From Candidatus Gastranaerophilales bacterium (GTDB lineage Bacteria; Cyanobacteriota; Vampirovibrionia; Gastranaerophilales; Gastranaerophilaceae): a DNA stretch of 64,000 nucleotides. Of the stretch, positions 5,310 through 48,273 are shown piece after piece (within the stretch, counting starts at the first letter, position 1; each line of letters opens with the position of its first letter). The notes beneath the pieces were generated by a model. That model was not told where the DNA came from. It was given only the letters and a program-made list of their open reading frames with translations, and ran no database searches. The stretch is from contig CALVBI010000002.1 of the NCBI GenBank assembly GCA_944325735.1, positions 620,001-684,000 on the forward strand, given 5' to 3'. The translations under genes and the position numbers were made by a program.

Positions 5310-5345
5310 TTGTTAACATTTATAAACTTATTTTTTAATAAATAA

Positions 5346-5388
5346 GCAATTAATTGACAAAGATATACTTTATATATTTAGAGTATAG
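5346..5388 (+). promoter_or_regulatory. Shared promoter-like module, copy A
   Basis: The sequence GCAATTA (5346) is followed 18 bases on by TATACTTTATATATTT (5364-5379) and lies 43 bases before the ATG at 5407. The same arrangement is found before the gene at 6823, and the TATACTTTATATATA core also at 48059 and, on the minus strand, at 27694. A consensus-like TTGACA (5354) sits inside the module but has no well-spaced -10. I infer a promoter for a special set of genes; which part is the -10 is not certain. Confidence 0.55.
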
Positions 5389-5406
5389 AAAAAACGAGGC
5401 ATTTTT

Positions 5407-6582
5407 ATGGAAACATTTTATAGCTTCCTTGGCGGGCCACGAACATTTTGGGGCAACAGTAACAGAACTATAATAAATAACAATTTTATTGGTGCAATGC
5501 CAATGACATACGGTTTTTCAAGACAAATGCCTATATTTGGAGCACACCATTGCTGTGGTGGTAATTCAAAAGCATTAAACTGGATGCTTGGATTTGGATT
5601 AGCAAGTTCAATTGTTGGCGGAATAATGAATACAGTTAACCAATCTAATAATGCAAATGTAAATTTTTACAATCCATACCAAACATATAATAATCCTTAC
5701 TATAATCCATATAATAATAACAACTATACTTATAATTATTCTAATCAAGATTTATCAAGCTTAACTGCTAAAGTAAATAAATTGGAAAATGAACTAGAAA
5801 CATATCAAAAACAAATACAAGAACTTGTGCAAAACAACGAAAATAAAGAAGTTAAGGCTGAAACAACGCCAACACAACAACAAGAAAATACACAACCAGA
5901 AATTCAAAAAAAAGAAGAAGTAAATACTCAAAATGAAACACAAAAAGTAAATAAAGAACAAAAAACAGAAACTCCTACAAATATTGAAAAATCTAAAGAA
6001 ACAACAGAAACACCAAATAACAAAAATAAAGTTGAAACTGTTGATAATTCAAAAAAAGTAGAAGAACCAAAACAAGAAAAAACTCTCGATGATATACTAA
6101 ATGAAATCGGTTTTAATAATCTAGATGAAGCAGCAAAGGACTACGTAAAAAGTAGAATTTCTCAAGTATATATCGACAATAACGGAAACATAAAATATGA
6201 TATAAAAGCTGTAGTCCATGATGGTGATAACTTAAATACAATTATTGATAGATTTTATACAGATGATGAAAAAGAAAATCTTGAAGTAGCAAAAGCTAAA
6301 TTACATACACAAGGTTCTGAAACAAAACTTATAGTAAATCCTCTATCTGGAGATACAATTACAGCAAACGGAGTTTCAGAATATGGACTAAAAGCTCTTA
6401 TGGAAGACGCAAAAAAAGGAATTACAAGACAAGGCGAAATTACCAAAACAAATAAAAGAATCTATGATTTAAAAGCAGCCTTCACAAACGGTGAAAAGAA
6501 ATTGTCAAAAGCATATGTATTACAAAATAAACTAATGACAGAAGAAGAATATAATAAAATTATTAAAGAAAAATACTCGTAG
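5407..6582 (+). CDS. Lineage-specific protein with TIINNN-HCC module and LysM-like C-terminal region
   Basis: I do not recognise a named family. The 391-residue protein begins with a short module shared with the gene at 6823: TIINNNFIG (residues 21-29), HHCC (47-50) and a glycine-bearing hydrophobic segment NWMLGFGLASSIVGGIMN (58-75). Then come an Asn/Tyr-rich stretch, a coiled-coil (about 118-145) and a long Glu/Lys/Thr/Gln-rich linker to about 225. The C-terminal domain (about 230-391) includes HDGDNLNTIIDRFY, which looks like the start of a LysM repeat, so cell-wall contact is possible but unproven. There is no signal peptide. The gene has its own promoter module and a strong terminator, so it is a single transcript. 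SD is ACGAGG, 8 bases before the ATG. Confidence 0.75.
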   Translation: METFYSFLGGPRTFWGNSNRTIINNNFIGAMPMTYGFSRQMPIFGAHHCCGGNSKALNWMLGFGLASSIVGGIMNTVNQSNNANVNFYNPYQTYNNPYYNPYNNNNYTYNYSNQDLSSLTAKVNKLENELETYQKQIQELVQNNENKEVKAETTPTQQQENTQPEIQKKEEVNTQNETQKVNKEQKTETPTNIEKSKETTETPNNKNKVETVDNSKKVEEPKQEKTLDDILNEIGFNNLDEAAKDYVKSRISQVYIDNNGNIKYDIKAVVHDGDNLNTIIDRFYTDDEKENLEVAKAKLHTQGSETKLIVNPLSGDTITANGVSEYGLKALMEDAKKGITRQGEITKTNKRIYDLKAAFTNGEKKLSKAYVLQNKLMTEEEYNKIIKEKYS

Positions 6583-6602
6583 TAAAATGTTAGTAAATCT
6601 AT

Positions 6603-6638
6603 AAAAGCCACTCAAACAATAATAAGAGTGGCTTTTTA
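6603..6638 (+). terminator. Intrinsic terminator after the first HCC protein
   Basis: AAAAGCCACTC (6603-6613) pairs with GAGTGGCTTTT (6626-6636) over a 12-base loop and runs into a T-tract. Confidence 0.9.
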
Positions 6639-6728
6639 ATTTGTTATATAAGCTTAAATTCAGGGAATATAAAATCAATGGGGATAGTTATTTTTCCATA
6701 TTAAATAATAAGCTTTTTTAATTCTTTT

Positions 6729-6801
6729 GTAACGAAATATTACAAAAATTCAAATAAAAAGCAATTATTTAAATAGTATATACTTTATATATATAAGAGA
6801 G
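6729..6801 (+). promoter_or_regulatory. Shared promoter-like module, copy B, with upstream inverted repeat
   Basis: An inverted repeat GTAA-N7-TTAC (6729-6743, core ACGAAATAT) lies upstream, then GCAATTA (6761), then TATATACTTTATATATATA (6777-6795), 44 bases from core to ATG. The 19-base core is identical to the minus-strand copy near 27694. The inverted repeat resembles TTACGAAATGTAA placed at nearly the same distance before the copy at 48059, suggesting a bound regulator. Confidence 0.6.
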
Positions 6802-6822: not shown

Positions 6823-8025
6823 ATGGGTATGTATAGCATAACCGGATGGTCAGGCGGAGGACGCCGTCCATTAACATACAATTTAAAAGCAGGACAATTC
6901 AGAGGCATGGGAAGAGTAAATGTTATCCCTAGCCAAACTACAATTATTAATAACAACATAATTGGTGGCGGGTATCAAACAAATCATTGCTGCGATAACA
7001 GTACTCCTAAATGGATGAATTGGATGATGGGTATCGGTATTGGCTCAACACTACTCGGTGGTATACTTAACATGTTTGGCATCGGAGGTGGAGGAGGAAC
7101 AGTCGAAGGTGCCGGAGGAAAAGAAGAACCACAAACAAGAACAGTAAAAGAAAAAGAAACAACTGATCCAACTCAATCAAAAGAATATCAAGAATTAAAA
7201 ACTCAACATGAAAAAGATGTTGAAGAAATTAATAAATTGAAAAAACAAGCAGAAGAGTATCAAAAGCAGTTACAACAACAATCTACACAACCAAAAGTAG
7301 AACAAGAAGAACCAAAACAACCAGACTACTCATTTATTAAAAATGGAGCTGCAATGGTTTGCAGAGATGCTAGTGGAAGAACTCAAAATATTGCAGGAAC
7401 ATTATCAAATGTTCAAACTGATGCAAATGGTGTTCCTCAAAGCTTCACATTGACAGATGGTACAAGTGGAAATAAATACCAATACGAAGTAAGAGTTGGT
7501 AATGACGGTACATTAACTTATGAATGTATAAGTAAAAACGGTCAAGCAACTATAGGTGCTCCAACATACACATTAGAAAACGGCCAACTAGTGAACAAAG
7601 AAGGTCAAAATGGTTTTGGACAAGGTATCAAAACACAAAGTACACCAACACAAACTGTCACAACTCCAACGCAAACAACACCTGCATCACAAAACGAAAT
7701 CAAAACACTTGCTGATGGGACGATGGTAAGCGACAATTTCACTGCTGTAACACCATATGAACATTCTGATGGCAAATATTATTCTAAAGAAGAAGCAATA
7801 ACCCCTTGGGGTAAATATGCACAAAACCAAATAAACAATACACAAACAAATACACCTAACTCAATAAAAACAAAACTTGAGAATAGCCAAGCCTTTAAAA
7901 ATGCTGGCGGCAGTGATGTAAAAATTACTCAAAATAGTGATGGCACATATACTGCTACATTCAAAATAGCAGGCGGCACAAGAACTATAAGCGGAGAAGC
8001 ATTACAAAAATTTATAGAATCATAA
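6823..8025 (+). CDS. Lineage-specific protein with TIINNN-HCC module (paralogue of 5407)
   Basis: No named family is recognised. The 400-residue protein shares its N-terminal module with the gene just upstream: TTIINNNIIG (39-48), NHCC (54-57) and a hydrophobic Gly-rich segment NWMMGIGIGSTLLGGILN (66-83) followed by FGIGGGGG. A coiled-coil runs from about 120 to 155. Two beta-rich stretches follow (about 170-270 and 350-400) with repeated small units such as NSDGTYTATFKIAGGT, separated by a Thr/Gln/Pro-rich linker. The C-terminal parts differ from the paralogue, so the conserved N-terminal module probably gives a common location or assembly property. There is no signal peptide. It is flanked by its own promoter module and terminator. 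SD ACGGAG precedes the ATG. Confidence 0.75.
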   Translation: MGMYSITGWSGGGRRPLTYNLKAGQFRGMGRVNVIPSQTTIINNNIIGGGYQTNHCCDNSTPKWMNWMMGIGIGSTLLGGILNMFGIGGGGGTVEGAGGKEEPQTRTVKEKETTDPTQSKEYQELKTQHEKDVEEINKLKKQAEEYQKQLQQQSTQPKVEQEEPKQPDYSFIKNGAAMVCRDASGRTQNIAGTLSNVQTDANGVPQSFTLTDGTSGNKYQYEVRVGNDGTLTYECISKNGQATIGAPTYTLENGQLVNKEGQNGFGQGIKTQSTPTQTVTTPTQTTPASQNEIKTLADGTMVSDNFTAVTPYEHSDGKYYSKEEAITPWGKYAQNQINNTQTNTPNSIKTKLENSQAFKNAGGSDVKITQNSDGTYTATFKIAGGTRTISGEALQKFIES

Positions 8026-12007: not shown

Positions 12008-12036
12008 ATTGTAACATATTTTAACAAAGACTTCAA
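12008..12036 (-). promoter_or_regulatory. Promoter of the phosphodiester glycosidase gene
   Basis: On the minus strand TTGAAG (12036-12031), 17 bases, TACAAT (12013-12008). Confidence 0.55.
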
Positions 12037-20157: not shown

Positions 20158-20322
20158 TATACCCTCAAAATATTCTGTAAAAACTTATAGAAAAATTATA
20201 CAACTAATGAAAATATTATCAAATGTTAACATAACTTAACAATATATAAAAAAAAAGCAATATTAAATCATAAAAATTTTTTATGTAATTAAGGTAGGTT
20301 ATAAAAAGTTAAGTAGGTTAAA

Positions 20323-27566: not shown

Positions 27567-27598
27567 AAAAAAAAAGCCTCCTTAAAATATAAGGAGGT
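27567..27598 (-). terminator. Terminator of the candidate small RNA
   Basis: On the minus strand CCTCCTT-ATATTTT-AAGGAGG is followed by C and nine T. On the plus strand the tail is poor, and pyk has its own terminator just before. Confidence 0.85.
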
Positions 27599-27680
27599 AA
27601 AATTTTCTTTTAGGAAGGTAGGAATAGGAATTTATAGTCTCTCTTTATTTAAACGATCTCTCTTAATATCATCGTGTTAT
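27567..27680 (-). ncRNA. Candidate small RNA convergent to pyk
   Basis: A leftward transcription unit of about 110 bases without a sensible reading frame runs from a promoter-like copy of TATATACTTTATATATATA (27694 leftward) to a strong terminator. The RNA holds C-rich single-strand candidates (CCTATTCCTACCTTCC) and ACCTCCTT at the terminator stem, the kind of sequence that can pair with Shine-Dalgarno regions. No Shine-Dalgarno or open reading frame over eight codons is seen at its ATG. The promoter likeness to three protein genes argues that this is a real unit. Exact ends are inferred. Confidence 0.55.
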
Positions 27681-27683
27681 ATA

Positions 27684-27733
27684 TATAAAGTATATAATTA
27701 ATATCTAATTTCAAAGATTACCCAATTTGTTAC
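27684..27733 (-). promoter_or_regulatory. Shared promoter-like module, copy D (minus strand)
   Basis: On the minus strand GTAACAAATTGGGTAA (from 27733) is followed by TGAAATT and then TATATACTTTATATATATA (27696-27678). TGAAATT sits 17 bases before the core, exactly as in the copy at 48057. The same site lies upstream of the rightward gene at 27813 and may serve both. Confidence 0.55.
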
Positions 27734-27746
27734 AAAAATTAATACT

Positions 27747-27812: not shown

Positions 27813-28091
27813 ATGTTAGTTTCTTCCATCGCTAGATTCAATGCAATTAACACTATGAATAATGCATCTTTTGCCTCAATGCAGGCTTCAAATTCTATAA
27901 TTAATGGTCTTAATAATACACATACATTTGGCGGTGAGCATGATTTAAGCATGTTAAATAAAATGGATAAGAAAAACAGTCTTGACTTATTAACAAATAA
28001 ATTATTATACAAAGTTGCATATCTTCAAGAAAAAATGGCTGCTAAACAGCAAAGTAATCAACTAAAAAAATCTTTAAATGTTTTAGCTTAA
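27813..28091 (+). CDS. Small protein of unknown function
   Basis: The 92-residue protein is unrecognised. It is Asn/Ser/Met-rich in the first half and helical, Lys/Gln-rich at the end (LLYKVAYLQEKMAAKQ). The end faintly resembles LLFAQMNFIAMANKQ in the 54-residue protein at 48109, which has the same type of promoter region. The Shine-Dalgarno ATAGGAG lies 6-7 bases before the ATG. The stop overlaps the MFS gene by 4 bases, tail to tail, leaving no space for a terminator. Confidence 0.65.
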   Translation: MLVSSIARFNAINTMNNASFASMQASNSIINGLNNTHTFGGEHDLSMLNKMDKKNSLDLLTNKLLYKVAYLQEKMAAKQQSNQLKKSLNVLA

Positions 28092-47939: not shown

Positions 47940-48010
47940 AATTTTCCCTATTTTCCCTATATAAATATAAAAACAGATTTTTAGCAATTATTGCTATTTA
48001 AAATAAAATA

Positions 48011-48075
48011 TTACGAAATGTAACAAGTTTTATGTTTTCTGAAATTTTGATATTTGTATATACTTTATATATACA
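48011..48075 (+). promoter_or_regulatory. Shared promoter-like module, copy C, with upstream inverted repeat
   Basis: TTACGAAATGTAA (48011-48023) is an inverted repeat (TTAC/GTAA) sharing ACGAAAT with copy B at a similar distance (46 versus 47 bases) from the core TATACTTTATATATA (48059). TGAAATT (48040) sits 17 bases before TATATACTT as in the small RNA copy. The gene at 48109 begins 50 bases after the core. Confidence 0.6.
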
Positions 48076-48108: not shown

Positions 48109-48273
48109 ATGGCAGTTGCAAATTTGAAAAAAATTGATGATAAATTAAAAAACATCTATGAAAATCAAGTTACTGTTAACAATAACCAACCATTTGAAGA
48201 TAGATCGGACTTATTATTTGCACAGATGAATTTCATCGCAATGGCAAACAAACAAGCTTTACACTTAATTTAA
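48109..48273 (+). CDS. 54-residue protein of unknown function
   Basis: The gene begins MAVANLKKIDDKLKNIYENQ and ends AMANKQALHLI. It has a GAGAGG Shine-Dalgarno 6 bases before the ATG, its own promoter module and its own terminator, which make a true short gene likely. The product is helical at both ends with an Asn-rich middle and no Cys or membrane segment. Its promoter core is shared with two larger unrecognised genes and the small RNA, so it may belong to the same regulon. Confidence 0.7.
   Translation: MAVANLKKIDDKLKNIYENQVTVNNNQPFEDRSDLLFAQMNFIAMANKQALHLI

What the first reader, a model, noticed from the sequence alone, without database searches (positions are those of the whole stretch)
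5346..6801. Shared TATACTTTATATATA promoter module before unknown genes and a small RNA
Seen: near-identical cores at 5364, 6779, 48059 and, on the minus strand, 27694; three of them lie 43-50 bases before start codons. Upstream they share GCAATTA or TGAAATT at fixed spacing, and GTAAC/TTAC inverted repeats 39-50 bases before the core. All protein targets are lineage-specific. A 17-base match in three copies is far beyond a base-composition expectation even for A/T-rich DNA. Inference: one regulator or alternative sigma factor controls a small regulon.
Basis: partly seen in the sequence, partly recalled or inferred. Interest (0 to 1): 0.75.

Follow-up and report, generated by a model that had tools for sequence, protein, structure and literature searches.

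The report
Order-wide promoter class with HLR1-like site
Four near-identical promoters in this gut bacterium's DNA belong to a promoter type found in every sampled genome of its order (non-photosynthetic relatives of cyanobacteria); it has its own candidate sigma factor and carries the DNA site that photosynthetic cyanobacteria use for light control (RpaB), here placed in front of unknown, probably exported proteins and small RNAs.

Summary
The four window sites are instances of a three-part promoter: TGTWAM-N4-TGTWAM tandem, then GCAATT, then exactly 12 nt, then [TA]ATACTTTATATA[TA]ATA. The genome (Gastranaerophilales, 1.94 Mb) has 32 hits against 0 in the reversed control. All 117 sampled genomes of the order have it (3-79 hits; controls 0-4); outside the order counts are at background. 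Spacing is fixed (103 of 107). The upstream repeat is not inverted: it is a direct repeat of 10-bp period matching HLR1, the cyanobacterial RpaB site, at an activating distance. Published work says these lineages keep rpaB and nblS with no known role. An order-specific sigma factor with an altered -35-reading helix occurs in 114 of 117 genomes and, within its family, usually lies beside a promoter of this class. Best explanation: a dedicated sigma plus an RpaB-type activator drive a regulon of probably exported proteins and small RNAs. The promoter class is near certain; activator, sigma and export are inferred.

The parts
5311..5326 (+). HLR1-like tandem TGTTAACATTTATAAA of promoter 1
5346..5351 (+). 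GCAATT element of promoter 1
5364..5380 (+). core TATACTTTATATATTTA of promoter 1
5407..6582 (+). target gene, 391 aa, no Pfam match, shares an N-terminal TIINNNF...HHCC module with the next gene
6728..6743 (+). HLR1-like tandem TGTAACGAAATATTAC of promoter 2
6761..6766 (+). GCAATT element of promoter 2
6779..6795 (+). core TATACTTTATATATATA of promoter 2
6823..8025 (+). target gene, 400 aa, no Pfam match; the promoter is conserved before its orthologues in three other Gastranaerophilales contigs
27729..27744 (-). HLR1-like tandem TATTAATTTTTGTAAC of promoter 3
27707..27712 (-). GAAATT variant of the GCAATT element, promoter 3
27678..27694 (-). core TATACTTTATATATATA of promoter 3
27570..27677 (-). 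predicted small RNA: pyrimidine-rich (CCUUCC, CCUCC) with a terminator hairpin; the 5' end is not mapped
48009..48024 (+). HLR1-like tandem TATTACGAAATGTAAC of promoter 4
48041..48046 (+). GAAATT variant of the GCAATT element, promoter 4
48059..48075 (+). core TATACTTTATATATACA of promoter 4
48109..48273 (+). target: small ORF of 54 aa (MAVANLKKIDDK...)

Best explanation
The four sites are members of one promoter class used throughout the order Gastranaerophilales. An RNA polymerase carrying an alternative, order-specific sigma70-family factor (best candidate: the 304-aa protein at G000:C3:184429-185343, locus L067) reads GCAATT and the AT-rich core 12 nt downstream. An OmpR-family response regulator of the RpaB type binds the HLR1-like tandem (TGTWAM-N4-TGTWAM) just upstream and activates. 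The regulon, about 35-40 units in this genome, consists of lineage-specific proteins without signal peptides, probably carried by the order's second FlhA-type export apparatus, and of short pyrimidine-rich RNAs that probably pair with purine-rich leaders. Shown: the three-part motif, its fixed spacing, distribution, placement before ORFs or short RNAs, and the sigma's co-distribution and linkage. Inferred: binding by RpaB, reading by this sigma, export, and RNA pairing.
For: Motif: 32 against 0 in the genome; 117 of 117 genomes of the order; background in 3 genomes of the same class and about 79 other phylum genomes; spacer exactly 13 to ATACTTTATATA in 103 of 107. Unseeded columns are also conserved: A at +17 28/30, T at +33 28/30, A/G at +34 30/30. 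Start codons 38-62 nt after the core start in 26 of 30. Activator: 10-bp direct repeat, strict form 18 of 95 against 0.04 expected, relaxed 40 against 0.66, other periods near background; identical to HLR1 read on the other strand, an activating site at about -66 to -45 in cyanobacteria (PMC13421787, PMC9241938); rpaB, rpaA and nblS homologues are kept in Melainabacteria with unknown role (PMC3787301; rpaA and rpaB also PMC5877343). Sigma: L067 clade in 114 of 117 genomes, at least 334 bits against at most 296 for paralogues, absent from three genomes of the same class; the only clade with VTKECIRQTE in place of VTRERIRQIE in region 4.2 and with altered regions 2.4/3.0. In family f1, 11 of 13 genomes have a promoter of this class or the same small RNA within about 1.5 kb of its gene; 1 of 47 loci of other sigma genes does. 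Targets: low charge, rich in S/T/N/Q and G/P/S/N at the N-terminus, 0 of 26 with a hydrophobic N-terminal stretch against 23 of 112 controls; a second FlhA-type protein in nearly all genomes.
Against: No transcription start, binding or expression data exist. Three draft genomes (G004, G096, G101) have the motif but no L067 hit. Two other sigma clades (L065, L066) are also confined to the order in this sample. Linkage of sigma and motif was seen only in family f1 and those genomes are related. If TATACT is the -10 hexamer, GCAATT would sit too close for a normal -35. About half of the promoters have only a weak tandem or none. Export rests on N-terminal composition and the presence of an apparatus.
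Confidence: 0.6

Rival explanations
1. The core is an ordinary SigA -10 (TATACT) without a -35; the RpaB-type activator provides specificity and GCAATT belongs to a second DNA-binding protein. No alternative sigma is involved.
For: TATACT is close to TATAAT; cyanobacterial promoters often lack a -35 (PMC9241938); in this register the tandem lies at about -63 to -48, inside the HLR1 activating window.
Against: An 18-bp conserved core and a rigid 12-nt spacer in 103 of 107 cases are more than SigA needs; many promoters with a perfect GCAATT and core lack a good tandem; the L067 linkage is unexplained.
Confidence: 0.22
2. Another order-specific sigma (L065 or L066 clade), not L067, reads the promoter.
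For: Both clades occur in all nine order genomes examined, including G004 which lacks L067.
Against: Their -35-reading helices are nearly canonical, and no motif lies near their genes in 18 loci.
Confidence: 0.13
3. A/T-rich background or a dispersed repeat, not a promoter.
For: The 15-mer alone is unremarkable in the window at 3 mismatches.
Against: 32 against 0 reversed controls, fixed spacing, position before start codons, absence outside the order, sequence outside the elements not shared.
Confidence: 0.02
4. Promoter and regulators as in the best explanation, but the regulated proteins stay in the cell or envelope; the regulon has nothing to do with type III export.
For: No target was shown to be exported; most have no recognisable domain; no copy of the motif lies in the flhA2 operon itself.
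Against: N-terminal composition and lack of signal peptides; CHAP, SLT and EF-hand domains in some targets; in G108 and G100 a motif-driven gene directly follows flhA2.
Confidence: 0.5

Closest known systems
HLR1 element / RpaB regulon of photosynthetic Cyanobacteria
   Same: Tandem half-sites KTTACAWW-N2-KTTACAWW (the copies here read as the reverse strand), 10-bp period, upstream of the promoter at an activating distance.
   Different: Here combined with a fixed GCAATT-N12-core not described in the RpaB papers read; targets are lineage-specific proteins and small RNAs, not photosynthesis genes.
Alternative (group 2/3) sigma70 regulons
   Same: Two conserved boxes at rigid spacing, a divergent sigma with changed region 2.4 and 4.2 residues, many scattered targets.
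   Different: This consensus matches neither FliA/sigma28 (TAAA-N15-GCCGATAA), sigma54 (GG-N10-GC) nor SigB-type (GTTT-N12-14-GGGTAT) promoters as known from textbooks.
CpxR box of Enterobacteria (GTAAA-N5-GTAAA; from memory)
   Same: Same half-site and period.
   Different: Enterobacterial regulator; RpaB is the phylogenetically closer owner of this kind of site.
Cyanobacterial and streptococcal small RNAs with anti-Shine-Dalgarno motifs (Yfr1, csRNAs; from memory)
   Same: Short, pyrimidine-rich unpaired stretches plus terminator.
   Different: No Rfam family matches.

Membership tests
[quoted passage not shown]
   period 10 enriched 18 against 0.04 (strict) and 40 against 0.66 (relaxed) in 95 promoters; the window copies are degenerate
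HLR1 / RpaB site | located about -66 to -45 from the start site when activating | tested here: inconclusive
   distance to the core is constant and fits, but start sites are not mapped
HLR1 / RpaB site | an RpaB orthologue in the same genome | not tested
   reported for related Melainabacteria genomes (PMC3787301, PMC5877343); not located in G000
HLR1 / RpaB site | binding of RpaB protein | not testable with these tools
   needs EMSA or ChIP
sigma70-family alternative sigma regulon | two boxes at fixed spacing upstream of many genes | tested here: met
sigma70-family alternative sigma regulon | a cognate sigma with matching distribution | tested here: met
   L067 clade in 114 of 117 genomes, absent from three same-class genomes; L065 and L066 also fit in the smaller sample
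sigma70-family alternative sigma regulon | the sigma starts transcription at the promoter | not testable with these tools
   needs in vitro transcription
FliA (sigma28) promoters | TAAA-N15-GCCGATAA | tested here: not met
   consensus
sigma54 promoters | GG-N10-GC | tested here: not met
   consensus
type III secreted proteins | no Sec signal; N-terminus poor in charge and rich in S/T/N/Q | tested here: met
type III secreted proteins | export that depends on the apparatus | not testable with these tools
   needs culture or heterologous export assays
known Rfam small RNA families | score above gathering threshold | tested here: not met

The most novel reading that the evidence does not exclude
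In the non-photosynthetic sister lineage of Cyanobacteria, the NblS-RpaB system was never, or is no longer, a light-response system: with a dedicated order-specific sigma factor it commands a secretome of lineage-specific proteins delivered by a non-flagellar type III-like apparatus, together with regulatory small RNAs, one of them encoded next to the sigma gene.
Probability: 0.35. Interest if true: 0.87.

Novelty: new variant of a known kind. Interest (0 to 1): 0.72.

Why it matters
Since 2013 it has been noted that Melainabacteria keep rpaB, rpaA and nblS without photosynthesis, with the comment that they may have another function. HLR1-like sites at a conserved position in an order-wide promoter class give a concrete, testable target list for that regulator in gut bacteria about whose gene regulation little is known. 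The same promoter signature is a handle for listing candidate exported proteins in these gut commensals, which lack recognisable signals and domains, and it defines small RNA families absent from Rfam.

Tried and rejected
Chance A/T background: rejected. FliA, sigma54 and SigB-like consensus: no match by inspection. SigF-like L068 as reader: unlikely because it is also present in the same-class genomes without the motif. Structure prediction of the 6823 protein: mean pLDDT 53, N-terminal 118 residues without confident structure; Foldseek against PDB gave nothing. Rfam: no family. Window sRNA folding: not more stable than shuffles (z -0.69), only the terminator hairpin is solid. Literature on promoters, type III secretion or small RNAs in this order: none found in the library.

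Full report
Source. The window is G000:C2:620001-684000 of a 1.94 Mb genome in 8 contigs. The closest named relatives of its genes are Candidatus Gastranaerophilales MAGs, gut members of the non-photosynthetic sister group of Cyanobacteria.

Observation. Taken alone with 3 mismatches the 15-mer is not unusual in the window (26 found, 18.3 expected), but the exact 14-mer occurs 9 times in the genome and 0 times when read backwards. With the upstream box, GCAATT-N12-TATACTTTATATATA at up to 3 mismatches gives 32 hits against 0. Four of the ten best fall in this window. Columns that were not part of the search pattern are also conserved: A at +17 in 28 of 30, T at +33 in 28 of 30, A or G at +34 in 30 of 30. 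A profile built from the 30 sites finds about 39 hits at E up to 0.005.

Distribution. All 117 sampled genomes of the order contain GCAATT-N13-ATACTTTATATA (up to 2 mismatches), 3 to 79 per genome, against 0 to 4 for the reversed pattern; the numbers are lowest in family f3 (3-8). Three genomes of the same class and about 79 of other classes of the phylum are at background. The spacer is fixed: of 107 matches with 10-17 nt allowed, 103 have 13, two have 12 and two have 14; the reversed control has none. The promoter is conserved before orthologues of the 6823 gene in three other contigs.

What it drives. In this genome 26 of 30 inspected sites have a start codon 38-62 nt after the first core base. 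Nearly all of these proteins are of unknown family: few of the 26 have any credible Pfam domain (CHAP in two, SLT, HD, ribbon-helix-helix and EF-hand in one each). Families recur behind the motif in other genera, for example MGFLSGAYGKL (L039, L179), MAIGA..YID.LL (L104, L217, L233, L241), the 6823 family (L199) and a ribbon-helix-helix protein (L054, L224, L242). N-termini are poorer in charge and richer in S/T/N/Q and G/P/S/N than those of 112 other proteins of the genome, and none of 26 has a hydrophobic N-terminal stretch against 23 of 112.

Small RNAs. The remaining four sites here, and 10 or 11 of 30 in a set drawn from ten genomes, lead short RNAs ending in a terminator: a CCUUCC-rich class (the window RNA at 27677-27570 minus, L183, L185, L186, L203, L205), a class with ACUAACCUU...ACGAGGAAU (L053, L059, L181, L190, L239, L251, L253), a third in family f2 (L184, L194, L204), and a very conserved one of about 60 nt, UAAAGCUCUCUCUUCUUAUUUAAACGGAUAGGCCUUGAA (L063, L214, L215). 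None is in Rfam. Leaders of the regulon contain GAGAG in 18 of 95 cases against 3.9 expected, complementary to the last RNA; pairing is a guess.

Third element. Upstream of GCAATT lies a direct repeat, not an inverted one: TGTWAM-N4-TGTWAM with 10-bp period in 18 of 95 promoters (0.04 expected), relaxed TRTWAM form in 40 (0.66 expected), other periods near background; it starts mostly 32-35 or 44-45 nt before GCAATT, one helical turn apart. All four window sites have the relaxed form 50-53 nt before the core. Read on the other strand this is HLR1, KTTACAWW-N2-KTTACAWW, the site of the OmpR-family regulator RpaB, which activates from about -66 to -45 (PMC9241938, PMC13421787). Melainabacteria, gut members included, are reported to keep rpaA, rpaB and nblS with unknown role (PMC3787301; rpaA and rpaB also in PMC5877343).

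Which sigma. The genome has eight sigma70-family genes: SigA, three more of the SigA type (L065, L066, L067), a SigF-like one (L068), a FliA-like one (L070) and two ECF. A tree over 12 genomes shows L065, L066 and L067 as clades of the order only. L067 alone has the -35-reading helix changed from VTRERIRQIE to VTKECIRQTE (one member keeps the I) and has altered regions 2.4 and 3.0. It occurs in 114 of 117 genomes with a clear score gap to paralogues. In 11 of 13 genomes of family f1 inspected, a promoter of this class or the conserved small RNA lies within about 1.5 kb of the L067 gene, in either orientation; none was seen beside it in four genomes of other families, where only about 0.8 kb on each side was held. 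Of 47 loci of other sigma genes one has the motif. This is correlation, not proof.

Export. Every sampled genome has FHIPEP (FlhA) homologues. Besides the flagellar type (about 860-890 bits), almost all carry a second type of about 685-736 bits, the only full-length one in G000, in an operon with FliH, FliF and FliE homologues; a separate FlhA C-terminal domain protein also exists (L073). Published accounts describe incomplete flagella in gut members (PMC4040986; PMC3787301). In G108 and G100 a motif-driven gene directly follows this second flhA. That the regulon encodes its substrates is an inference with roughly even odds.

Judgement. Promoter class: near certain. RpaB-type activator: likely (about 0.7). 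L067 as the sigma: more likely than not (about 0.6). Export: about even. The kind of system, a sigma and response-regulator regulon, is known; this combination, its order-wide extent and its link to a cyanobacterial light-control site outside photosynthesis are, as far as the searched library shows, not described.

Noticed in passing
window 12011-12026 (-) and 20226-20241 (-): Strict HLR1-like tandems without GCAATT lie about 60-85 nt upstream of a phosphodiester glycosidase (NAGPA) gene and an isocitrate/isopropylmalate dehydrogenase gene, so an RpaB-type regulator may control further genes.
   Followed up: partly
L072 (G000:C4:37010-39124) and 117 genomes: Nearly all Gastranaerophilales carry a second type of FlhA with FliH, FliF and FliE neighbours, even where the flagellar FlhA is missing.
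   Followed up: partly
L073:1471-2949 (-): A 492-aa protein holds only the cytosolic C-terminal half of FlhA; an extra FHIPEP match besides the full-length one is usual in the order.
   Followed up: no
L063, L208-L215: A small RNA of about 60 nt with an almost invariant 5' part is encoded near the L067 sigma gene in three genera, in either orientation.
   Followed up: partly
L053, L059, L181, L190, L239, L251, L253: A second small RNA family with ACUAACCUU and ACGAGGAAU boxes and a terminator, not in Rfam.
   Followed up: partly
L248 and L252, first ORF after the motif: Two related short ORFs (MKSLLKFINRRKK...; MKALFNFLYRRNR...) follow the motif: a possible small-protein family.
   Followed up: no
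L054, L224, L242: A ribbon-helix-helix regulator (MARVLISMPE...) is behind this promoter in three genera, a possible second tier of control.
   Followed up: no
window 27813-28091 (+): A 92-aa unknown gene starts divergently from the small RNA promoter behind its own A/T-rich upstream region.
   Followed up: no
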